A model generated the notes under the pieces. That model had not been told where the DNA came from. It did not search any database and worked only from the letters and a program-made list of their open reading frames with translations. Shown here piece after piece: positions 1 to 10,365 of a stretch of DNA of 64,000 bases. Where the stretch lies: contig NZ_JBBNAD010000001.1 of assembly GCF_037996765.1 (NCBI RefSeq), forward strand, positions 1 through 64,000. The letters are read 5' to 3'. This DNA comes from Bdellovibrio sp. GT3 (GTDB lineage: Bacteria; Bdellovibrionota; Bdellovibrionia; Bdellovibrionales; Bdellovibrionaceae). Every line of letters starts with the position of its first letter. The first letter of the stretch is position 1. A program made the translations under genes and the position numbers.

Positions 1-892
1 ACGGCAAGATTTTTCTGTCATTGTAGTCACCCAAACCGAGAGTCCCGAGACCATTCGCTCCCGTACACTTAACGGAGTTGTCATTGAAAATTGCACATGT
101 TGTAAACGGGCCAGTGTAAATAGATTTTGCACCTTGAAAACCTGATACGGTCACTGGAGTTGCACGATCTGTGGTGTCTCCTAAACCCAATTGACCATAA
201 TTATTTCGACCGCCACATTTAACGCTATTATCAGACATAATTGCGCACATGTGAGCACCTAGTGCGATATCTTTTGCACCTTGGAAGACAGTTACTTCAG
301 TGGGAACTGAAAATGCTGAAGATGTTCCGCTACCAAAATACCCTGTTCCAAAACACTTAACTTTGTCCTCTAAGGTGATCACGCATGTGCCAGAACCACC
401 AGTATTTCGTAGAAGCTTGGCTTTTAGAATGGCAACTTCGCAGGTTGAACCAGTCTTTTCATAAGCGGTATCGCAAACTAGAGCAGCTGCAATTTTATTT
501 TGACCAGCTTGAGTACCAGTATCGAAGTGCTCACCCAACGCGACGCCAACAGTGGCTTTGCCGCCTACAGCACCCGTAATGGCAATGTCAATTGAGCCAG
601 CTGGTGACTGATAAGAGCGCTTGGGAGCAGAAGATGCGGGTGGGCATAGAGCATTGGATACAGAATTTCCGGTTGTTGTTTCAATACAACTTAGGATGGC
701 GGTCGCCGCTACTTCTACAGTCCCGTCTCCGATGGCTAGAGAGGGTGTAGTATAGCTATACGTTCCTTGGTAGTTAGAGATCGCATCATTGCTTGGCGAA
801 GAGAAACCGCCACCACCAGATCCCGAAAGACATCCAGTCAATATCTGTGTACTAGTTGCAATCAGCAATAGCGAAAACTTATTGGTCATCAT
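1..892 (-). CDS. RCC1-repeat lipoprotein, 5' part (runs off left edge)
   Basis: Reading the minus strand from an ATG at 892 (GGAG about 6 bases upstream; a second ATG follows directly) gives an open frame to base 1. The protein begins with a signal peptide ending in a lipobox (LTGC, Cys at about residue 23) and a Gly/Ser linker, so it is probably a surface or periplasmic lipoprotein. From about residue 190 it has repeating units of roughly 50 residues such as CAIMSDNSVKCGGRNNYGQL and CAIFNDNSVKCTGANGLG, each with LGLGD and DNSVKC cores. This is the RCC1 beta-propeller repeat pattern in its cysteine-rich bacterial form. Such propellers usually bind proteins; the target is unknown. The C-terminus lies outside the window. 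Confidence 0.8.
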   Translation of the reverse strand, partial: MMTNKFSLLLIATSTQILTGCLSGSGGGGFSSPSNDAISNYQGTYSYTTPSLAIGDGTVEVAATAILSCIETTTGNSVSNALCPPASSAPKRSYQSPAGSIDIAITGAVGGKATVGVALGEHFDTGTQAGQNKIAAALVCDTAYEKTGSTCEVAILKAKLLRNTGGSGTCVITLEDKVKCFGTGYFGSGTSSAFSVPTEVTVFQGAKDIALGAHMCAIMSDNSVKCGGRNNYGQLGLGDTTDRATPVTVSGFQGAKSIYTGPFTTCAIFNDNSVKCTGANGLGTLGLGDYNDRKILP

Positions 893-999: not shown

Positions 1000-1347
1000 T
1001 CACTTAGGAGAGTTACGAAGTTGAACCTTTTTGATGCTTACGCGCACTAATCCTTCAAACATTTCAGTTTCTTCAAACAACTCAGCAATAGAGCTGACTT
1101 CTCGATTAACCTGAACCTCTCCTAACAGTAGCCTAGAGAAGTCTACTCCAAGGGACTGAGAAAGACGGAAAACTGCATGAAGATCTCGGGGAGAGTTTCC
1201 CGCAGTCCAGTCCGAAACGACGGATACACTGACCCCTGCCATTTGCGCTACCATCTTAAAGGTAAGTTTTCTTTCCTTCATGATCCCGGATAGTATTTTT
1301 CCAAAGGGCACTTCCTTGCGCCCACGTGGTTTAATCGTCTTTTTCAT
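1000..1347 (-). CDS. XRE-type helix-turn-helix regulator
   Basis: Encodes 115 residues. Residues about 17-70 fit an XRE/Cro DNA-binding domain: GKILSGIMKERKLTFKMVAQ, then MAGVSVSVVSDWTAGNSP as turn and recognition helix, followed by a helix resembling the end of such domains (LSQSLGVDFSRLL). A basic N-terminus (KKTIKPRGRK) precedes it. The C-terminal 35 residues are of no family I recognise. It lies 75 bases downstream of the AAA+ gene on the same strand, so it may close that operon as its regulator, or be expressed alone. No strong Shine-Dalgarno sequence is visible. DNA-binding assignment is fairly sure; the target is inference. Confidence 0.75.
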   Translation of the reverse strand: MKKTIKPRGRKEVPFGKILSGIMKERKLTFKMVAQMAGVSVSVVSDWTAGNSPRDLHAVFRLSQSLGVDFSRLLLGEVQVNREVSSIAELFEETEMFEGLVRVSIKKVQLRNSPK

Positions 1348-1422
1348 AGTTCGCCATTATGGGACTCAACTTGAGTCAGTTTAAGCTTATTCCGTCTTGT
1401 CGTAACTGTCCGGATTGTCGTA

Positions 1423-3594
1423 TTAGACGATTGAAATCGTCTTCACTTTAGGGTGTCGAGATGCGATTACCTCTTCACATTCCCGGTTCAGAAACTCCAA
1501 GTTGGGACCGTAAAAATTTAGAACCTTGAAGCAGATATCCGCGATGTCTGCGCCTGTAAGTTCGTGCTTTGCAAGCTCCGTAATATCGTCTGTGCGTAAG
1601 GTTGGTGCATAGTCTTTCCATAGCTTTTCCCTGACAATAAAGGATGGTGAAGTGAACTCGAGGTGAAATAAGAACCGTCTTTTAAATGCCGGGTCCAATA
1701 GATCATACCTATTGGTTGCAGCAATCACGATACCGGGATACGCATCGAACCTTGTGAGCAGTTCGTTTGCCAAACTTAACTCATGTGTCCGTTTTGCGAA
1801 GTCCCGAGAAATGAAAAGGCTTTCGGCTTCGTCCACAAAAATCATCTCCGGTCTGTTTTCGTTGTACTTAAAATGTTCGCGGACATTTTTCTCGCTCTGA
1901 CCAACATACATGCCGAGAATGTCTGATGGCGTGATTACCTTAAGGCTCATGTTGAGGTCTTCAGCAAATGCGTTGGCTAGGGCTGTTTTCCCGAGGCCAG
2001 GAGGCCCTGAGAATAGTAGCTTAATTCCTTTGGGAAATTGCTTTGGGTTTTGCTGAAACTTCAGTAAACCATAGTTAATAGGTTTGAGTCGTTCTTGAAA
2101 GTCCTGCTCAAAATTTAAGCGAGGAGATTTGATGTCTTTCTTCCGAAGCTTCTTAACGTCTTCAGGAGGAAGGAAGTAAGAGACTCTTTGGATAAAACTT
2201 TCTTTCAAGTTCTCAAATGTTTTAAACTCCGATTGGACGGATGCCAGATGAAAAATACTGTCGTAATACCCAGGAGCGAGATCAAATTTACTCAGTTCCC
2301 AGACTTCTCTATCCGAAAGTTCAAAGGCGTATTTTCTAGCCAACTTGGCTATGATCGATGATTTTTGATTGCAGCTCAGTTCTTGAATATCCAATGCATA
2401 GGTCATGCGTCTATCCAAACCGTAAGGTAATTCGTAGTTACTTGTGAATATTGCAATACCTTGGAATTCCTGGAATAGAATTCGCGCCCATCCAGCAGTT
2501 TTTTCTTCCTCTAGTGAGGACCAAAATAGTTGGTCAGCCTCGTCAAAGAACAGAATATAGTCTTGAGACTTGGCTTGTTCGCAGTAAAACTTCATGTATG
2601 TTTCTATCGTATTTTCATTGTACTTCAGTGAAATCCTCAGAAGCTTCTTGCCAAGGTACCTAGCGATACCGTGAGCCAACGTCGTTTTCCCAACGCCAGA
2701 TGGTCCTTTGAAGAGAAATGTAAGGGACTTTGACTTATCTTCTCGTAAATGCGAGTCACATAGCTTGATAATGTCCTCACGAGTTTTACTTTCTAAAACC
2801 AACTCATCGATGGAATGCTCTGGAGTAATTTCATCAGATGCTCTACTTCCTCCACTCTTTACCTTGTTAAAGGTTCGGCTTGTATAGTCTGAGGTCAACA
2901 AATTCATATCATCCCAATTACCTCCCACTTGAGAGAGGTTGACAGTGATCACTCTTCTAGAAAAAAGATAAGAAGAACTAGAAAGCTCTCGCTCTAACTC
3001 ATCCGTTGAGTACAAAGACGATAGACGTTCTTTTAGTTTATATATTAAGTGTGCGTCGCGTTGGCGGGCACCCCTTCTTAGTGTGGCCTTAGGGAATCCG
3101 AATCCACTAAGACTAAGATGCAAAATATAGATATCCCAATGTAGTTGATTCTGTAAAAGACCTTCAGGGTCAACACGAATCCGAATTTTTGAATAGTGGG
3201 GTTCTAGTTTGTCTTGAATAACTTTTAGAGTCGTATGGCAAAGGAAAACTGTTTTTTGAATCAACAGATTAACTAGATCAACATCTTCCTTGTCAAAGAA
3301 GTTGTCCTTCTCCAGGCAATCAGTCGAACGCAGAAAAGGTAGATTGCTACTTCCTGCAAATGCTGTCAGATATTTGAAGTTTCCGCCTTGCTTGATCTGT
3401 GTTAAAGCGGCTGTTAAAAGTATACGTAGGTGCTCCAGTCCTATCAAATGATGAATGTCATCCGTTTGCATAGATGGAATGCTTAAGAGCTCCTTCGCGG
3501 TTAGAAAATGTTTGAAGTCGCTATTTGATGCATTCGCGACGTCTTCAATATCATCAAAGCCGATATCGTCCCAGTACTCGTGATCATTTCTCAT
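1423..3594 (-). CDS. Tandem AAA+ ATPase (two AAA modules)
   Basis: Encodes 723 residues with two AAA+ modules. The N-terminal 280 residues match no family I know. AAA-1 has Walker A GPSGVGKTT (about 297-305), Walker B ILFFDEAD (about 347-354) and a sensor-like TSNYELPYGLDRR. AAA-2 has Walker A GPPGLGKTA (about 530-538), Walker B MIFVDEAESLF (about 584-594) and sensor/arginine-finger region AATNRYDLLDPAFKRRF. The second module is of the classic Cdc48/FtsH-like AAA type, suggesting an oligomeric remodelling ATPase. The start overlaps the end of the upstream nuclease-like gene by 11 bases, which implies translational coupling and a shared function. Both nucleotide-binding sites look intact. The substrate is unknown. 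Confidence 0.85.
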   Translation of the reverse strand: MRNDHEYWDDIGFDDIEDVANASNSDFKHFLTAKELLSIPSMQTDDIHHLIGLEHLRILLTAALTQIKQGGNFKYLTAFAGSSNLPFLRSTDCLEKDNFFDKEDVDLVNLLIQKTVFLCHTTLKVIQDKLEPHYSKIRIRVDPEGLLQNQLHWDIYILHLSLSGFGFPKATLRRGARQRDAHLIYKLKERLSSLYSTDELERELSSSSYLFSRRVITVNLSQVGGNWDDMNLLTSDYTSRTFNKVKSGGSRASDEITPEHSIDELVLESKTREDIIKLCDSHLREDKSKSLTFLFKGPSGVGKTTLAHGIARYLGKKLLRISLKYNENTIETYMKFYCEQAKSQDYILFFDEADQLFWSSLEEEKTAGWARILFQEFQGIAIFTSNYELPYGLDRRMTYALDIQELSCNQKSSIIAKLARKYAFELSDREVWELSKFDLAPGYYDSIFHLASVQSEFKTFENLKESFIQRVSYFLPPEDVKKLRKKDIKSPRLNFEQDFQERLKPINYGLLKFQQNPKQFPKGIKLLFSGPPGLGKTALANAFAEDLNMSLKVITPSDILGMYVGQSEKNVREHFKYNENRPEMIFVDEAESLFISRDFAKRTHELSLANELLTRFDAYPGIVIAATNRYDLLDPAFKRRFLFHLEFTSPSFIVREKLWKDYAPTLRTDDITELAKHELTGADIADICFKVLNFYGPNLEFLNRECEEVIASRHPKVKTISIV

Positions 3595-4540
3595 TTTGTA
3601 ACTCCGTTGTGAACGTTTCGATTTTCATTGTTAGATTCTCTTTGAGCCCCTGGGAAAGCATGATTGCCTTTCCCAATGATTTTCTGCTGGAGTTTGTTGC
3701 TTTGATGATTTCATTTATTGTGTCGATTTCTGACCTTACCGCTTCGATAAATTCAGCGACTTCCTCGTGCTTTCCAACAGAAACAGTTTGTGGAATAAGC
3801 AGCCTGGCTACCGAGATTGCGATAGGCAGGTGTTCCAGCGTGCAGGTGATGTGCTTCTTACCTACGTGAAAATTTTTGAAATAGTCGGGAAGACAGGTTT
3901 GGTTACGAACTACGAAAATTCCTGCCGAAGCCCCACGGTTTTGAAGGCTTTCAACCATGATTTCTTCAATTTTTGCAGGGGAGATCTTTCCCGTCAGATC
4001 TTTAGCCTCAATCGCAATGAGTCCGCGCGATAGTTCGTCTCTATAGATGAAATCACCCTTTTTACCTCCTGTTAAGCCAGGGACAAGTCCTACGGATTCT
4101 ACTTCTCCGTTGCGAAGAGACGCGAGATTTGACAGAACTGCGAGAGTTTCTTCCTCAAAAGTTCCCCCTTTCAAAGTGGTCATTCCAGCTATTGCCGCAG
4201 CAGCGTCCTTTGCAGTTTCGGTCTGTTGTACTTTGTTTTTGAACTCTAAGATATTTAGAGTGATATCTTCTTTAAAGTCGCGAAGGAGCTCTTCATTGGA
4301 ACCGATAAGGTTCGTTGATAAGCCTTCGATCCATTCTTTGGTTAAACGTTCCCAATAATCAAAATCTCCACGATTTTGACCTACCTTTATGGAAACCCAT
4401 CCCACTTCGATTAGACTAGACAGTGCTGCGTCACGCTCTGCGTAATCTAAAGTTGCAAAGTGTGATGTGATTTCAGAGCTGTAGCTGGACTTTAAAGTGA
4501 ACTTTTCGGCTTGGAGTTCGCCATTGGTTGCGTGAATCAT
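3584..4540 (-). CDS. Putative PD-(D/E)xK nuclease-fold protein
   Basis: Encodes 318 residues. I do not recognise a named family, but the order of motifs in residues 125-205 fits a PD-(D/E)xK nuclease core: a helix with an acidic pair in GGTFEEETLAVL (about 126-137), GDFIY with Asp163, the strand IAIEAKD with Glu178 and Lys180, then a helix ending near Gln200 (ESLQNR). The preceding 120 residues are helical and charged and could bind a partner. The 60 C-terminal residues look helical. It overlaps the thioredoxin-like gene by 4 bases (ATGA) and the AAA+ gene by 11, so the three are translated together. The likely model is a nuclease whose action depends on the AAA+ partner, but this is inference. 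Confidence 0.6.
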   Translation of the reverse strand: MIHATNGELQAEKFTLKSSYSSEITSHFATLDYAERDAALSSLIEVGWVSIKVGQNRGDFDYWERLTKEWIEGLSTNLIGSNEELLRDFKEDITLNILEFKNKVQQTETAKDAAAAIAGMTTLKGGTFEEETLAVLSNLASLRNGEVESVGLVPGLTGGKKGDFIYRDELSRGLIAIEAKDLTGKISPAKIEEIMVESLQNRGASAGIFVVRNQTCLPDYFKNFHVGKKHITCTLEHLPIAISVARLLIPQTVSVGKHEEVAEFIEAVRSEIDTINEIIKATNSSRKSLGKAIMLSQGLKENLTMKIETFTTELQNEK

Positions 4541-4878
4541 AAACGCTCCGCAACTTTTTGGATCGTTCTTAGTACCATGGATTTGTCGGGTGAACCGATA
4601 ATGGTGTGCATTTCGTATTCACCACAATAGAAGTTAAAGGTCGGAACCTTTTCAATTCCGAAGCTCTCGACCACTTCTCTGGTAACGATTACGACCTGAT
4701 CGCAGACGTCTTCAAGCCAAGGGTTCTGGTTCCAATAGTTGTTACATAAATCTGAAGTATCTAAAAAGCAGATTACCTTTTGAGGATTACCTTCAAGTAA
4801 GCTGCAGAAAATGTCGACCGGGTCTTTCAGGTACGCGGCAATAGGGTGCTCTTTCGAGCAGAACTGTACAACTTTCAT
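4537..4878 (-). CDS. Thioredoxin-fold protein lacking a CxxC pair
   Basis: Start taken at the ATG at 4878 because GGAGG lies 4 bases upstream; the open frame extends further but that part looks non-coding. The 113-residue product ends like a thioredoxin: VVESFGIEKVPTFNFYCGE, with the cis-proline position (KVPT), then a Gly and a C-terminal helix. The first strand VICFLDTSDLCNNYW occupies the active-site position but has no Cys-x-x-Cys, so it is probably not a disulfide oxidoreductase. A catalytically inactive thioredoxin fold often acts as a binding scaffold. It overlaps the next gene by 4 bases (ATGA). Fold assignment is moderately sure; function is unknown. Confidence 0.6.
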   Translation of the reverse strand: MKVVQFCSKEHPIAAYLKDPVDIFCSLLEGNPQKVICFLDTSDLCNNYWNQNPWLEDVCDQVVIVTREVVESFGIEKVPTFNFYCGEYEMHTIIGSPDKSMVLRTIQKVAERL

Positions 4879-4957
4879 AATACCTCCGTTGATCGGACGT
4901 AATGAAAATCTCGTGCCGGATTTTTCTTGATTGCGCGACGAGCACCGGATAGTTTGC

Positions 4958-4984
4958 GCATGTCGGGTGGAGTGCCCGAAATGC
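4958..4984. other. Short hairpin between recombinase and operon
   Basis: GCAT-TCGGG pairs with CCCGA-ATGC around a 7-base loop, with one mismatch in the stem. No T-run follows on either strand, so it is not a normal terminator. It lies in the 137-base gap between the recombinase stop and the thioredoxin-like gene and could be an operator or RNA stem. Confidence 0.35.
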
Positions 4985-5015
4985 CTCATCACTAACTATT
5001 TGAATTCACTGGAGT

Positions 5016-6731
5016 TTAAATTGTGTCGATATTGATGGGTGGGGCACCATTTCCAACAGTACTCGAACCCACACGGGTCGGGTTCTTGGAGGAGAATGGT
5101 AGCACGGCAGCACCTTCATTATTTTCTCTTAAAATTGAGTTTTCTGATCTGGGCGATGGGTTTCCGTCGGTTCCTGTGGCCTTGAGTGGCTCTTTTGTTG
5201 GGGCGTAGATGCCCATTTTGATCTTCGTTGGGTGGATTTCGATGAATTTCACCAGGTTTGTGAAGATCGGTCTTTGTTTTTCTTTCGGGGCCTTCTCTAG
5301 GTTCTTTAAAACATTTTCTATTTTAGCTTTAAGGCCATCTTGGTCAACTTCCTGACCACGTAAATCCATCTCTTTTGTTTTTAGATTTTCTTTCGCTAAC
5401 TTTAACTCGTTCATTCTCTGAGTCATTTGCTTGATCTGCTCATAAAATGCTTCAGCTGGAACTTCCGTAGGAAGTTCTGCGATTCTTTGCACAAGGTTCG
5501 TGATCCGTTTGGAGGTCGTTTGGATTTCAAGTTCCAACTTCTTTGCCTGCATTTGCACTTCTGGAAGCTCACTCGTGGTCTTTGACTGATATATTTCAAT
5601 CCACTTGGAGATAAGACTTGGGTCATTGAGCAAGGCTCTTAATGACCTTGTGACAATCTCCTCAAGCCTTGGCGCTCTGACGTTTTTCACTTGGCACTGA
5701 TGCGCGTGATCTTTCGCCAAAGGATTCTTTAGCTGGGGATGTCCGTAGTAAAAGTGCTTTTCTATTCTTCCTGTTCCAGATTTACCACCTAGAGACTTTC
5801 CACACTCACCACATTGAACAAGTTCGGTGAGAGGAAATGGATATTTCTTCCAGGTCTCCGGCTTGTATCGGTTTTTGTTTTTACTAAGGCGCTCTTGGAC
5901 TTTGTTAAATATCTCTTCGCTGACAATAGCAGGCCATACCGCTTTAATGAACTCTGCCGATCCATCCTTGTGCTTTACTTCTCGAAGTCCCAAATATGCT
6001 TTGTTGGTGAGTAGTGAATTTAGCGTATCAACCGAGAAGACTTTGCCGCCCTTTTCAATACCATTCTTATTCGTGAATTTTTTATTGAAGGCACCAGCTT
6101 CGATCAAAGCTACCTGGGTTTTACGAAGTGATTCTTTCTCAAGGAATAAATTAAAGACTTTCTGAACTATACAAGCCTCTTCTTTGTTAATGACTAACTC
6201 ACCTTTGTTCTTGGGATTACGATCGTAGCCTAAAGGAATTGTTCCACCATTAAAAAGTCCTCGTTTAGACCTCGATAGCCAATTAGCCGCTATCCGTTCA
6301 GACGTTTGCATTCTTTCGTACTGGGCATAGTTAATAAGATTAAAGACCATCATCTCGCCGCTTGCGGTGGTCGTATCAAAGTTTTCTCTAAGGGTTACAA
6401 AGCTTGCTTTGTGGTGTTTGAGAAGATCCCAGACTTCGCAGAAATCTTTAATGCTTCTATTGAGACGAGAGAGTTCAGTGGCGATGATAAGATCAATTCG
6501 GCCAAGTTTCACGTCATTAAGTAAACGTAAAAACTCCGGACGGCCGTTCATGTTCTTGGCCGACTTTCCTTCATCACAATAAATATCAACCAGGGTGCCC
6601 CAGTTGGGTTCTCTTTTGTTTTGAAACTCAATGTATTCTAGTAAGCGATTTCTTTGTGAGACAAGTGAGCCATCTTGGATTCTGGCTTGTTCTTCCGTGG
6701 ACACACGGAGATAGATTCCGATTCTTTTCAT
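5016..6731 (-). CDS. Large serine recombinase
   Basis: Encodes 571 residues, normal for a large serine recombinase that integrates or excises mobile DNA. The N-terminal resolvase domain holds the catalytic Ser11 in IYLRVSTEEQA, and the conserved ATELSRLNRS segment with Arg residues near position 90. A recombinase domain follows (GLFNGGTIPLGYDR near 160, VFNLFL, LLTNKAYLG), then a zinc ribbon (CGECGKS near 307-313 and C346), then a long coiled coil about 395-490. The last 25 residues (from SSKNPTRVG) look unlike the family and may be encoded by attachment-site DNA. The start overlaps the small upstream gene by one base (TAATG) with GGAGG just upstream. It marks the adjacent genes as probably mobile. 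Confidence 0.93.
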   Translation of the reverse strand: MKRIGIYLRVSTEEQARIQDGSLVSQRNRLLEYIEFQNKREPNWGTLVDIYCDEGKSAKNMNGRPEFLRLLNDVKLGRIDLIIATELSRLNRSIKDFCEVWDLLKHHKASFVTLRENFDTTTASGEMMVFNLINYAQYERMQTSERIAANWLSRSKRGLFNGGTIPLGYDRNPKNKGELVINKEEACIVQKVFNLFLEKESLRKTQVALIEAGAFNKKFTNKNGIEKGGKVFSVDTLNSLLTNKAYLGLREVKHKDGSAEFIKAVWPAIVSEEIFNKVQERLSKNKNRYKPETWKKYPFPLTELVQCGECGKSLGGKSGTGRIEKHFYYGHPQLKNPLAKDHAHQCQVKNVRAPRLEEIVTRSLRALLNDPSLISKWIEIYQSKTTSELPEVQMQAKKLELEIQTTSKRITNLVQRIAELPTEVPAEAFYEQIKQMTQRMNELKLAKENLKTKEMDLRGQEVDQDGLKAKIENVLKNLEKAPKEKQRPIFTNLVKFIEIHPTKIKMGIYAPTKEPLKATGTDGNPSPRSENSILRENNEGAAVLPFSSKNPTRVGSSTVGNGAPPINIDTI

Positions 6732-6916
6732 TAGCTAGCCTCCTTCATTTCTGAAGCTGTGCTTTGGTCACTCGCTTGATCCTGCTGCTGTTTTAAGGCA
6801 CGGTCAATTTCGAGTAAGGCTTTTACCAGTTGCACAACTTTGGTTTCGTATTCAGTTCGTTTTAAATGCACCTCGATCATTTCAAGTTCGTAGTTTTCTA
6901 TTCCTACTACTCGCAT
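6731..6916 (-). CDS. Small charged protein upstream of recombinase
   Basis: The frame is open from a TTG at 6919 or ATG at 6916; I prefer the ATG. The roughly 61-residue product is a single predicted amphipathic helix (LEMIEVHLKRTEYETKVVQL) followed by a Gln/Ser-rich tail. Its TAA overlaps the recombinase ATG by one base and its last codons supply the GGAGG used by the recombinase, so the two are coupled. By position it could help control recombination, for instance as a directionality factor or regulator. No family is recognised. Confidence 0.55.
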   Translation of the reverse strand: MRVVGIENYELEMIEVHLKRTEYETKVVQLVKALLEIDRALKQQQDQASDQSTASEMKEAS

Positions 6917-7418
6917 CAATTATTGTTATCCTTCATAATTACACCTCCAGTTTTTTTGATTGATTGTTTTTTGCCGTTTTCCTCCTGTCTTTTGTTCCCC
7001 TCTCTCATACTTCATTTTTTTATAAATTTCCTATTAATATTTCTTATCCTGTCCATCCCATTTTCCCGTTTCGTGACCACTTTCGCTCGTAGAGGGGGAG
7101 TGGTCACGAACGCTTGCGAGGGAAAATGGGATGGACAGGACTCCGGGTTCTTCAAATATTTTGAATGTTTACGGAGGCTTTTTCTTCTTCAAATCGAATT
7201 AAATAACCGCGGAAGCTTTCCGCATATTTTCCGTAGCCTTTGGAATTTACCAAAATAGTTCATTGAAATGCGCGGACTCCGTGTCGCCTAAAATCCGCGA
7301 TCGAAGGAACTTTTTGGCTCAGATATTTTTCATTCATGTCGCATTGAATTGGGAATTAATCGTGTAAAAAAAGGTTTCAAATTTTTTGAAAGATTTTACT
7401 TTGGAGTTCTGAAAAGAA
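6917..7418. other. Gene-free spacer beside the accessory block
   Basis: This roughly 500-base stretch has no convincing gene. The plus strand is strongly T/C-rich at 6950-7050 and A/T-rich at 7330-7400. It contains the inverted repeat at 7047-7140 and must hold the promoter for the recombinase operon, and possibly one end of the integrated element. I could not pick a confident promoter or attachment core by eye. Confidence 0.5.
7047..7140. repeat. Large imperfect inverted repeat
   Basis: A perfect 21-base arm (7047-7067, beginning TCCTGTCCATCCC) pairs with 7120-7140. Inside it, 12 more bases (7070-7081, TTCGTGACCACT) pair with 7099-7110 around a 17-base loop. The two stems are separated by an uneven internal loop (2 against 9 bases). 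No T-run follows either side. It stands upstream of the recombinase operon in an otherwise T-rich gene-free stretch. It could be a recombinase or plasmid-type site, a foldback remnant of a small transposable element, or a structured RNA. Confidence 0.8.
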
Positions 7419-7452
7419 AAACCCGCTGATTTTCATTGAAGTCAGCGGGTTT
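7419..7452 (-). terminator. Rho-independent terminator
   Basis: AAACCCGCTGA pairs with TCAGCGGGTTT (11 base pairs, 12-base loop), followed on the minus strand by TTCTTTTC. It ends the minus-strand gene at 7488. Confidence 0.85.
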
Positions 7453-7487
7453 CGATAATTACTTTTGCAAGTTCAACAGTGCCTGGC

Positions 7488-9059
7488 TTATTTCCAATTT
7501 ATTCGGAACGGGCCTGTAATGCTGGGAAAAATCAGATCGCCTGACGGAGAAAGTTGGTTAATCATATAAGCTCCATTGCCGAAATTATCTTGCCCGAAGA
7601 TTGTGCGGTGGACAGTTTCTCCCGTCATCCAATCCATTCCTGTCACTTCCCAGCCATCCTTCTTGCTGTAACCATTTACCAAGACAATATTAGAAGGAAT
7701 GCTGACCGAAGGAACAGTGGTGAGTGACGAGACGTCGTTGCGCGCCCAAACCGAGCGCCATTTGTGTTCTTTCGGATCCCACTCGAATCGTTCCACTCCG
7801 TGTGCGGACCTAACCACAGGGCCCAATGCAATTGCATTCACGAGCGCGTCTTCCGGCATTTTTTCGTCACCGATATTATTCACGACGAAAGCACCATAGC
7901 CTTTTGAAACCACGGATTGCTCGCTCTGAATAAAGCGAGGAGGTTGTGCGAATCCTGCCTTCACCTCAATCTGATCGGCGATACGACGGGATTTGGTACC
8001 TTTCTTCTGCTTAAATTTTTTTGGAATTTCATCCCTCCAAAAAGCAACAAGCTTCATTCGATCCGACCCGTCGGTAATCACGACAAGTTTGTCGGCATCG
8101 TTCCCGAAGCCAACAAGAGTGGGAGTCGATCCTGTCCCTTGTTGAAGGCCCGATGCACCGTTGTGTGAATCTGTATCGTAAGGGGAAATCCATGCACCAT
8201 TTTTGTCAGTGGCAAGTTGAGCGCCGTTCCAGACCAACTTGTGCATATTTTTATTGGTGGCAACATAGATACCGCCCTTTTCATCGACCGCGCCTCCATT
8301 GCGAACTTCTTCTCCCTTTCCCAATTTAACCCGGATCGGTTTGCTTTTAAGTTCGCGATCAATCACGGCCACCGCGTTTCGGCCGATAGCCACAAGCCAG
8401 CCATCATAGGTCAGTTGTAAAGCAAAGAGTCTTTCTCCTTCACCCAGTACATCCGTCACCTTTATGGAGTTTCGGATCTTGATGCCTTGCTCTGGCTTTG
8501 CAGGATTGATCAAGCTAAAGGCATAAATGTCTGTGCCGCCATAGGTAGAAAAAAGAGTGTTGTCATTGTCCACAAGACCATAGATGCCGCCCTCAATCCA
8601 ATCTCGACCATGGTCAATGCCATAGATCTTGTGCACAACATTTTCTACCGCATCTATCGAAGTAAATTGCTGATCCAAAGCTTTTTCATGAACCTCGAGA
8701 GGAATGACGTGGGCTTTTTGGACCGGAAGCCGTGCCAACTCTTTCCAAGCTCCATTCCTGACATCAATGTAAACGACTCCTGCAGGTCCTGAAGTCCACA
8801 TGTAATCTGCAGATGGGGATGCTAAAACCGCACCTGTTACCGGACCTCCGATCACGTGCGGCGTTTTTCGAAGATCCACTTTGAACGTACCGCGCGCTAT
8901 GGGAAACGGCATCGAATCTGTTTGCGCCGGATCAAAATGAGTAGAGGCACCGTAATCAGCAGCAAGAAAGGTGTTTCGCGTGGGGCGGCTTACTTCGTTG
9001 GCAAAGACCATTTGACCGATTAAAGTGCTGAAAAGCCCAAGTATGACGGAATATCTCAC
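7488..9059 (-). CDS. Exported beta-propeller-like protein, function unknown
   Basis: Start taken at GTG 9059, preceded by GGAGG, because it places a signal peptide at the N-terminus (VRYSVILGLFSTLIG, cleavage near VFANE). The open frame extends 26 codons upstream without a signal sequence. The mature part of about 500 residues has repeated strand-rich segments with WTSGPAGVVYIDV, GIYGLVDNDNTLFSTYGG, GGIYVATNKNMHKLVW and LVVITDG, as in PQQ-type or sugar-binding beta-propellers. No catalytic motif is recognised. It appears to be a single-gene unit, ending at the terminator at 7419-7452. Periplasmic or secreted location is well supported; the role is not. Confidence 0.7.
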   Translation of the reverse strand: MRYSVILGLFSTLIGQMVFANEVSRPTRNTFLAADYGASTHFDPAQTDSMPFPIARGTFKVDLRKTPHVIGGPVTGAVLASPSADYMWTSGPAGVVYIDVRNGAWKELARLPVQKAHVIPLEVHEKALDQQFTSIDAVENVVHKIYGIDHGRDWIEGGIYGLVDNDNTLFSTYGGTDIYAFSLINPAKPEQGIKIRNSIKVTDVLGEGERLFALQLTYDGWLVAIGRNAVAVIDRELKSKPIRVKLGKGEEVRNGGAVDEKGGIYVATNKNMHKLVWNGAQLATDKNGAWISPYDTDSHNGASGLQQGTGSTPTLVGFGNDADKLVVITDGSDRMKLVAFWRDEIPKKFKQKKGTKSRRIADQIEVKAGFAQPPRFIQSEQSVVSKGYGAFVVNNIGDEKMPEDALVNAIALGPVVRSAHGVERFEWDPKEHKWRSVWARNDVSSLTTVPSVSIPSNIVLVNGYSKKDGWEVTGMDWMTGETVHRTIFGQDNFGNGAYMINQLSPSGDLIFPSITGPFRINWK

Positions 9060-9195
9060 GAAGCCTCCAAATATGATTCTAAATTTACCGATGTATGGAA
9101 ACGGAATAACATCACTAAAAGTATAATTTGGAATCAATAATACGAAATAAGTATTTCAACACTTTCAGATGAACTCTAAGTAGAGGACAGCGGTT

Positions 9196-9378
9196 CTAAT
9201 TTTTATTATTAAGTTCAGGAGAAGGCCGTTTAAAACACTTTTGCCGCACAAAGGCCTCGGAAGCCCCAATCACAGCTGCAGCCTTTGCATGCGTTCCATA
9301 TTTATTAACAACTCGCAGCAGATCATCTAATAAGAGAGCCTTGGGCTCCGCGACTTCCTCAAACTCTATCTCAATCAA
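9196..9378 (-). CDS. Small protein, possible helix-turn-helix
   Basis: A 60-residue frame starting at TTG 9378, with no clear Shine-Dalgarno sequence. The middle (LLRVVNKYGTHAKAAAVIGASEAFVRQ) resembles a helix-turn-helix in which an alternative-codon stretch gives two short helices. The same frame stays open upstream to the terminator-like hairpin at 9458-9480 without an ATG, so the start is uncertain. It could be a real small regulator, a decayed gene, or chance. Confidence 0.35.
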   Translation of the reverse strand: MIEIEFEEVAEPKALLLDDLLRVVNKYGTHAKAAAVIGASEAFVRQKCFKRPSPELNNKN

Positions 9379-9457
9379 AGCCTGAAAACGCAGCCAAGCC
9401 GGTTCGTCTACTCCGGGGACTCGCGCACCAAATCTTTCCTTGAGAAAGAGATAAAAT

Positions 9458-9487
9458 AAGCTGACTGAATAAGTCGGCTTTTTTTAT
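9458..9487 (+). terminator. Orphan plus-strand terminator
   Basis: AAGCTGACT pairs with AGTCGGCTT (one G-T pair, 5-base loop), followed by a run of T on the plus strand. There is no plus-strand gene between 9060 and 9458, so it may end a small RNA or an antisense transcript. Its stem is nearly that of the terminator at 10915-10938. Confidence 0.6.
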
Positions 9488-9627
9488 GCCCAAAATCTGC
9501 CGCCAGGCCACGCGTTTCATCTCAAAATTCGATAGATAGCTTCGAATCATTATACTATTCAGAATCATCGCATTGCGGCATATTCCGTCCTGTTTCAACG
9601 TATCTAAACTTTTAAACCGGAGTGGTT

Positions 9628-10365
9628 ATGAAAAATTTGTTCTTGTTCCTAGCGATGACATTGGGTTCTTTAAATGCTTTCTCTGCGGCTCGTGAATTCC
9701 GTATCAACGGATATTCGGCAGACGGTGGTTATGCTATCGGCTGGGGGATTCCTGGCAAGATGATCGACTTTGAAGAAGTTGAAAAGGACGAAGACAAAGT
9801 CAGCGAGCTTTGGGGGCAGATGTCTTTGATGCGCAATTATTTGGTGGATGTTCAAACAAATCAGATTTTGGCGACGATCCACACTGATCCGGATGAGTTT
9901 GTAGCAATCAGCTTGGGTGGCATGAGCAATAACCACTACAGCATGAAAACAAAAAATCTGGGTTCTTTCTATGCGAAGGATTCTATTGAGATAGTGGCGG
10001 TTTTCGAATCTTTCAAATGGAATACAAATCTTTCATCCGTTTTCGTTATTAACAAGAATACTCATCAGCCGGTTGTGGTAAACAGAATCAATAATCTTGA
10101 GGAGCGCATGCTGGCTGCGGCTAAAGCTACTTTGACTCCGGCGCAGGTTGAACAATTTGATAAAGGTGCACTTTACTTCAGTATGGAAGAGATGGGTTAC
10201 GATGTGCAATTAAATAGAGTTTATAAAATCGTTTGGGAGTCAGCTATTCCTAAAAGTATCGATGACCCCTTGGTGACTGTAACAGCTCGTTTGAAATTGG
10301 ATGTTACGGCGGATCGAGATGTTAAGTTTGAAGTGGATCAGGTTCAGTATACTGAAGAAAACTAA
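9628..10365 (+). CDS. Exported protein of unknown function
   Basis: Start taken at ATG 9628 (GGAG 5 bases upstream) rather than the GTG two codons earlier. The 245-residue product has a clear signal peptide (KNLFLFLAMTLGSLNAFSAA). The mature protein is acidic and strand-rich, with phrases such as RNYLVDVQTNQILATIHTD and VVAVF-like strands but no motif I can assign. It is probably periplasmic or secreted. It precedes another small exported protein at 10496 on the same strand, separated by 130 bases that could carry a separate promoter. Confidence 0.75.
   Translation: MKNLFLFLAMTLGSLNAFSAAREFRINGYSADGGYAIGWGIPGKMIDFEEVEKDEDKVSELWGQMSLMRNYLVDVQTNQILATIHTDPDEFVAISLGGMSNNHYSMKTKNLGSFYAKDSIEIVAVFESFKWNTNLSSVFVINKNTHQPVVVNRINNLEERMLAAAKATLTPAQVEQFDKGALYFSMEEMGYDVQLNRVYKIVWESAIPKSIDDPLVTVTARLKLDVTADRDVKFEVDQVQYTEEN

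What the first reader, a model, noticed from the sequence alone, without database searches (positions are those of the whole stretch)
1000..6919. Accessory block that could be an undescribed defence or mobile system
A large serine recombinase leads a minus-strand string in which a thioredoxin-fold protein, a PD-(D/E)xK-like protein and a tandem AAA+ ATPase overlap by 4 and 11 bases, followed by an XRE-type regulator. ATPase-plus-nuclease pairs with a regulator beside an integrase are the usual layout of anti-phage systems. I cannot match this combination to a named system.
Basis: partly seen in the sequence, partly recalled or inferred. Interest (0 to 1): 0.8.

Follow-up and report, generated by a model that had tools for sequence, protein, structure and literature searches.

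The report
Mobile-island defence operon, nuclease plus unfoldase
Four co-regulated bacterial genes (a thioredoxin-like protein, a DNA-cutting-type nuclease, a double ATP-driven unfoldase and a repressor) ride on a mobile DNA island that also carries proven kinds of anti-virus systems, so they are probably a rare, unnamed anti-virus system; the recombinase next to them belongs to a different mobile element.

Summary
The genes and both overlaps (4 and 11 bp) are real. The recombinase-led "string" is not one unit. A tRNA-Leu attachment core at window 5041-5049 separates two mobile elements stacked in tandem: element A (5041 to about 9430; serine recombinase P0005 plus cargo) and island B, whose left end is the operon Trx-fold / PD-(D/E)xK nuclease / tandem AAA / XRE / RCC1-like lipoprotein. 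Island B continues on contig C5, carries a full Thoeris system, and ends at tRNA-Leu(tag) beside its own, different serine recombinase. A same-genus genome has the same island (16.4 kb, same five genes in order, 57-83% protein identity, other cargo, no P0005); sister genomes have the empty site. A third genome has Trx + nuclease + XRE without the ATPase, next to candidate defence genes. In 369 genomes of the phylum the Trx and the nuclease occur together in exactly three. No library names the set; the best resemblance (IetA) fails. Most likely an undescribed defence module in which a Cdc48-like unfoldase and a one-cysteine thioredoxin-fold partner control an Mrr-type nuclease. Association with defence is well supported; the mechanism is inferred; nothing shows activity.

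The parts
4537..4878 (-). Thioredoxin-fold protein, 113 aa, one conserved cysteine (C45, CxxY) and the cis-proline motif VPTF (P79)
   Evidence: AlphaFold pLDDT 67.8, pTM 0.66; Foldseek best 6x0b E 9.2e-6; VIA Z 10.3 to thioredoxins; C45 and P79 invariant in four relatives, second Cys absent in all
3584..4540 (-). Mrr-type PD-(D/E)xK nuclease, 318 aa: KG..FE (124-129), GD (162-163), EAK (178-180), helical arms on both sides
   Evidence: Invariant G125 F128 E129 G162 D163 E178 K180 in 9 relatives including haloarchaeal ones; Mrr_cat matches 7 of 9, best 3.5e-6, P0003 itself only 0.02; predicted core resembles PD-(D/E)xK folds
1423..3594 (-). Tandem AAA ATPase, 723 aa; both Walker A/B, sensor and Arg-finger motifs intact; FtsH/Cdc48-type pore loop MYVG (562-565) in D2
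   Evidence: Pfam AAA E 1.5e-38, two stretches; nearest solved structures are archaeal VCP-like ATPase, Rix7, Cdc48, NSF; motif positions; alignment with five relatives
1000..1347 (-). XRE/Cro regulator with a C-terminal extension (FEGLVRVSIKKV)
   Evidence: HTH_3 E 1.1e-5; 82.6% identical in G022; family in 16 of 40 relatives, alignment
1363..1377 (.). Perfect palindrome GACTCAA-C-TTGAGTC in front of the XRE gene, probable operator
   Evidence: Only exact copy in the window; unchanged in G022
4879..5040 (-). Left end of island B: conserved upstream region of the Trx gene with its ribosome-binding site
   Evidence: About 40 bases identical up to GGAGGT and about 35 bases identical near the island end, while coding DNA is 62-66% identical
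2..892 (-). RCC1-like lipoprotein, cut by the contig start; fifth gene of the conserved block, probably not part of the mechanism
   Evidence: 57% identical to its counterpart in G022; rest on G000:C5; such proteins are common in the genus (26 of 40 genomes)
5041..5049 (.). Attachment core TGGTGCCCC (minus strand), the 3' end of tRNA-Leu; junction between element A and island B
   Evidence: Same core at both ends of the G022 island and at tRNA-Leu(tag) in G000:C5; shared with the 81%-identical recombinase of G019 at tRNA-Leu(taa)
5016..6731 (-). Large serine recombinase P0005 of element A (neighbour, not part of the operon)
   Evidence: PHROG 95 integrase E 1.2e-101, Resolvase/Recombinase/Zn ribbon; absent beside the operon in G022
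6731..6916 (-). Small ORF P0006 of element A, overlapping the recombinase start
   Evidence: no family match
9422..9490 (.). Outer end of element A and the chromosomal flank of the tRNA-Leu(tag) site
   Evidence: Aligns with the same flank in relatives, score up to 109 against a shuffle maximum of 24

Best explanation
The operon Trx - nuclease - tandem AAA - XRE is an undescribed defence module, cargo of a tRNA-Leu integrative island. Shown from sequence: co-directional overlapping genes, conserved regulator and operator-like palindrome, mobility of the island, company of known defence systems, intact ATPase and nuclease motifs. Inferred: the Trx-fold protein and the nuclease, translated from overlapping genes and found together in all three loci, form a complex in which the Trx-fold subunit (one cysteine, so not an ordinary disulfide reductase) holds, matures or anchors the nuclease. 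The AAA protein, which has the pore loop of protein unfoldases and not a DNA-motor layout, forms a hexamer that recognises an infection-made protein or protein-DNA complex and, by pulling on it or on the Trx-nuclease complex, frees the nuclease to cut DNA (phage DNA, or host DNA as abortive infection). The XRE protein keeps the block silent through the palindrome until needed. Logic like Hachiman or McrBC (ATPase restrains or drives a PD-(D/E)xK effector), built from other parts. In one relative the Trx-nuclease pair stands without the AAA, so the pair is the core and the AAA an added control.
For: Trio and order conserved in G022; Trx and nuclease found in exactly the same 3 of 369 phylum genomes (chance 1.2e-7 if the two were independent; two weaker Trx-like hits at E about 2e-4). 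Island B also encodes Thoeris (ThsA E 2.9e-188, ThsB 3.2e-72 and 1.9e-54), its G022 copy PDC-S73 (5.2e-184); the third locus has PDC-M41B (1.6e-122) and PDC-M30A-like genes. Clean insertion: joined flanks match end to end in several sister genomes, best 97%. Islands far more diverged than their chromosomal flank (pS about 0.8 against dS 0.35 for gcvH, 0.84 for gcvT), proteins under purifying selection. Trx fold, PD-(D/E)xK core, AAA motifs.
Against: No activity has been shown. Only three loci, so 'always together' rests on few events. Guilt by association is weaker for an operon at the end of an island than inside a defence cluster. The ATPase is missing in one of three loci. The nuclease model is weak outside its core (mean pLDDT 56.7). 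No model of the complex was made; restraint by Trx and release by AAA are conjecture. The homologous haloarchaeal nucleases have no Trx beside them.
Confidence: 0.55

Rival explanations
1. A stabilising (addiction) module of the island, toxin-antitoxin-like: nuclease as toxin, Trx-fold protein as its antidote or chaperone, XRE as autorepressor; the AAA protein a helper. It keeps the island in the chromosome; phage defence is secondary.
For: Small gene overlapping upstream of the toxin-like gene; XRE with an operator-like palindrome; pair present without AAA in G344; same end position in both islands B while other cargo changes.
Against: A large two-engine ATPase is costly and unusual for addiction; XRE has its own upstream region instead of being the antitoxin of the pair; Mrr-type nucleases are usually restriction effectors (family knowledge).
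Confidence: 0.2
2. A McrBC-like or Type IV restriction system: the AAA protein is a DNA-bound motor and the nuclease cuts modified or foreign DNA directly; Trx is a structural subunit.
For: Mrr_cat family link and fold resemblance of the nuclease core to McrC (Z 7.9); AAA plus PD-(D/E)xK pair; a related tandem AAA also sits beside a DUF2130-like PD-(D/E)xK protein in G030.
Against: The ATPase is Cdc48/IetA-type with two PF00004 domains and the aromatic pore loop of protein unfoldases, no McrB family match and no recognisable DNA-reading domain.
Confidence: 0.15
3. Not defence: genes for upkeep, transfer or excision of the mobile island.
For: The operon is the common part at the left end of both copies; the related XRE family stands at other mobile elements together with exported proteins.
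Against: G344 has the Trx-nuclease-XRE set in an element with another recombinase; integration is explained by the separate serine recombinase at the other end; no relaxase or conjugation gene was seen among the ORFs read.
Confidence: 0.1
4. The finding as written: a recombinase-led five-gene system.
For: Same strand, short gap.
Against: tRNA-Leu attachment core between recombinase and operon; a recombinase relative stands without the operon (G019, 81%) and the operon without the recombinase (G022).
Confidence: 0.03

Closest known systems
IetAS (AAA ATPase IetA + protease IetS)
   Same: AAA of the same broad Cdc48/FtsH type paired with an effector; best defence-library match of P0002 (PADLOC IetA 1.5e-38)
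   Different: Single AAA in IetA against two here; NCBIfam score 124 against cut-off 510; no protease gene; effector is a nuclease; extra Trx-fold subunit
McrBC
   Same: AAA ATPase plus PD-(D/E)xK nuclease; nuclease core fold resembles McrC (Z 7.9)
   Different: No McrB or McrC family match; ATPase is a tandem unfoldase type; Trx-fold partner
Hachiman (HamAB)
   Same: Works-like parallel: ATP-driven sensor restrains an effector nuclease and frees it (PMC12278908, abstract)
   Different: HamB is a helicase, not an AAA unfoldase; no Trx; no family match
Mrr-type solo nucleases of haloarchaeal and methanogen plasmids (e.g. WP_284014865, WP_015313854)
   Same: Full-length relatives of P0003 (20-25% identity), in neighbourhoods with helicases and restriction genes
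   Different: No Trx and no adjacent coupled tandem AAA; longer coiled middle part

Membership tests
IetAS | IetA-family AAA ATPase above the curated score | tested here: not met
   NCBIfam IteA 123.8 bits against cut-off 510
IetAS | Adjacent serine (subtilisin-like) protease IetS | tested here: not met
   No protease among the operon proteins in Pfam, PADLOC, NCBIfam or noticed among neighbouring ORFs read in L072 and L008
McrBC | McrB AAA GTPase and McrC families | tested here: not met
   No McrB or McrC family match listed for P0002 or P0003; only a fold-level resemblance to McrC, Z 7.9
PD-(D/E)xK superfamily, Mrr_cat branch | GD ... (E)xK catalytic motif in alpha-beta-beta-beta-alpha-beta core | tested here: met
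   G162 D163 E178 K180 invariant in 9 sequences; core order in the model; fold matches
PD-(D/E)xK superfamily, Mrr_cat branch | Pfam Mrr_cat score of the window protein above cut-off | tested here: inconclusive
   P0003 15.4 bits against 21; 7 of 9 relatives match, best E 3.5e-6
Thioredoxin fold | Fold | tested here: met
   VIA Z 10.3, rmsd 2.4, 93 aligned; Foldseek E 9.2e-6
Thioredoxin (redox enzyme) | CxxC active site | tested here: not met
   CNNY, CTKY, CADY, CEHQ in four relatives
AAA (Cdc48/FtsH type) | Two AAA domains with Walker A/B, sensor Asn, Arg fingers, aromatic pore loop | tested here: met
Named anti-phage system in PADLOC 2.0.0 | Model for each partner | tested here: not met
   No match for P0003 or P0004 at E 1; P0002 matches only the AAA members of other systems
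Anti-phage defence system | Protection of cells against phage | not testable with these tools
   Needs an experiment

The most novel reading that the evidence does not exclude
A new class of immune system in which a dedicated one-cysteine thioredoxin-fold subunit is bound to an Mrr-type nuclease and senses or holds its state, and a Cdc48-like double unfoldase dismantles that complex on infection to release the nuclease; cousins exchange the nuclease for another partner (G057: Trx-like gene overlapping a 522-aa protein of no known family).
Probability: 0.25. Interest if true: 0.75.

Novelty: new variant of a known kind. Interest (0 to 1): 0.52.

Why it matters
ATPase-plus-nuclease immune pairs are known, but I know of none with a thioredoxin-fold subunit tied to the nuclease or with a Cdc48-type double unfoldase as the engine. 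If it protects cells, it would link protein unfolding, and possibly redox state, to nuclease release. The tRNA-Leu site also turns out to be a defence hotspot with stacked mobile elements.

Tried and rejected
Single system led by the recombinase: rejected (attachment core, G022, G019). IetAS and McrBC membership: rejected on defining features. Search for the nuclease in genome contigs and of nuclease, Trx and AAA in viral contigs: no relatives, but these tools use short exact patterns and find close relatives only; the broad alignment A8 had no searchable stretch. Plasmid search with the Trx: nothing. Plasmid and phage AAA hits were mostly Cdc48, FtsH or WYL-associated ATPases with other neighbours, not the trio. 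Solved-structure profile search with the nuclease alignment gave only chance or coiled-coil matches, discarded. XRE operator scan: one exact site, the weaker ones are at chance level. Literature searches found no description of this combination; abstracts only were used.

Full report
What is there. On the minus strand lie, in reading order, a small ORF (6731-6916), a large serine recombinase (5016-6731), a 113-aa protein (4537-4878), a 318-aa protein (3584-4540), a 723-aa tandem AAA ATPase (1423-3594), a 115-aa XRE regulator (1000-1347) and a lipoprotein cut by the contig start. The overlaps of 4 and 11 bp are as reported. The 113-aa protein begins at the ATG at 4878 behind GGAGG; both close and distant relatives begin there, so the longer GTG form (4992) is not right.

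What the proteins are. The 113-aa protein matches no family, but its model (pLDDT 67.8, made from three relatives) is a thioredoxin fold (Foldseek E 9.2e-6; Z 10.3). The first cysteine of the usual CxxC and the cis-proline are invariant in four relatives and the second cysteine is missing in all. The 318-aa protein has the PD-(D/E)xK signature GD...EAK, invariant in nine relatives including haloarchaeal and methanogen plasmid proteins; seven of nine match Mrr_cat (best 3.5e-6; the window protein itself only 0.02), and its model's core resembles PD-(D/E)xK proteins such as TIP26, Cdn1, Can2 and McrC (Z 7.6-9.5; mean pLDDT only 56.7). The ATPase has two intact AAA domains, closest among solved structures to VCP-like ATPase, Rix7 and Cdc48, with the MYVG pore loop typical of protein unfoldases (family knowledge). 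Its best defence-library match is IetA (1.5e-38), far below the curated IetA cut-off.

Relatives. Among 60 relatives only G022, same genus, has the trio, with identical order, overlaps of 4 and 8 bp, and the XRE and lipoprotein genes behind it. Over 369 genomes of the phylum the nuclease occurs in three and the Trx, at strong scores, in the same three. The third, G344, has Trx, nuclease (overlapping by 14 bp) and XRE but no AAA. Tandem AAA relatives in G030, G275, G253 and G068 stand with other partners, one of them a DUF2130-like PD-(D/E)xK protein. Between G000 and G022 all proteins are under purifying selection, and stretches of the upstream regions, including the palindrome GACTCAAGTTGAGTC before the XRE gene, are conserved better than coding DNA.

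Two mobile elements, not one. In complete genome G022 the island is 16.4 kb, framed by direct repeats AGATTTGGTGCCCC, one being the 3' end of tRNA-Leu(tag) next to gcvH and gcvT. A query of the two flanks joined matches end to end in several sister genomes (97% in G011, 93% in G021, 85% in G019), so the island is a clean insertion. Beside the tRNA sits a second serine recombinase, 77% identical between G000 and G022 and absent from the other 38 genomes searched: the island's likely integrase. In G000 the same right end lies on contig C5, whose first 734 bases repeat window 13-745 at 99.5%; I read C1 and C5 as adjacent, with the lipoprotein gene across the gap (inference). The left end core is at window 5041-5049. 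Beyond it lies the 3' end of recombinase P0005, whose 81% relative in G019 abuts another tRNA-Leu with the same 38 bp and carries none of the operon. At window 9422-9490 the chromosomal flank of the tRNA-Leu site reappears (score up to 109, shuffles at most 24). So P0005 belongs to a separate element of about 4.4 kb stacked beside the operon's island of about 18.5 kb.

Defence context. Island B in G000 carries a complete Thoeris system (ThsA 2.9e-188; two ThsB) and a HEPN/Toprim protein; in G022 the same island carries PDC-S73 (5.2e-184). G344's locus has PDC-M41B (1.6e-122) and PDC-M30A-like genes. At the same tRNA site G005 has an integrase-like gene and a restriction-methylation-like protein. 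Synonymous change in most island genes is saturated while gcvH has dS 0.35 and gcvT 0.84, so the two islands were probably acquired separately.

How it probably works. I infer a nuclease kept by its Trx-fold partner and controlled by a protein unfoldase, with the XRE protein as repressor; the pair is the core and the AAA an added control, since one of three loci lacks it. The order of steps is not shown by any data here. Rival readings are an addiction module, a McrBC-like DNA-motor restriction system, or island upkeep.

Novelty. No library (Pfam, PADLOC 2.0.0, NCBIfam, PHROGs) and no paper found names this set. It fails IetAS and McrBC membership. As an ATPase-plus-nuclease immune candidate it is a variant of a known kind; the Trx-coupled nuclease and the double unfoldase are what is new. 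The host's name is not given by the tools; from the gene content I take it for a Bdellovibrio-like bacterium (own judgement, not tested).

Noticed in passing
L072 (G000:C5) 6391-8944: Complete Thoeris system, ThsB-ThsA-ThsB, inside the same island.
   Followed up: yes
L119 (G057:C12:77000-89207) 7970-9869 and 4703-7135: Distant one-cysteine Trx-like gene overlapping by 53 bp a 522-aa protein with no family match, in an element with the same kind of XRE gene, exported proteins, PDC-S06 (1.4e-226) and a relative (30%, E 2e-101) of the 913-aa protein of the G022 island.
   Followed up: partly
L008 14320-17061; L072 3573-6313; L119 4703-7135: Family of 810-913-aa proteins without Pfam match on these islands, C-terminal part looking by eye like a tyrosine recombinase; split by a frame break in G000.
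   Followed up: partly
window 7047-7140: Nested inverted repeats (21 nt 100%, inner 19 nt 84%) upstream of recombinase P0005 in element A.
   Followed up: no
window 7488-9137: 549-aa cargo protein of element A with no Pfam match; absent from the G019 relative of the element.
   Followed up: no
window 1-745 and G000:C5 1-734: Contig ends overlap at 99.5% with a frame error near the C5 end; the assembly breaks in the repeat-rich RCC1-like lipoprotein.
   Followed up: partly
L042-L047, L038, L119: XRE regulators with the same C-terminal extension often stand at mobile elements with exported protein or lipoprotein genes behind them.
   Followed up: partly
L115 (G005:C1:689000-704000) 4694-9969: The same tRNA-Leu site holds a different integrase-like gene and a 1337-aa restriction-methylation-like protein: a defence hotspot.
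   Followed up: partly
L011, L012, L013, L019, L020, L021: Full-length relatives of the nuclease on haloarchaeal and methanogen plasmids beside helicases and restriction genes, without Trx.
   Followed up: partly
G000 whole genome: The methyltransferase that flanks the tRNA-Leu site in sister genomes was not found in G000, so the left flank seems rearranged.
   Followed up: no
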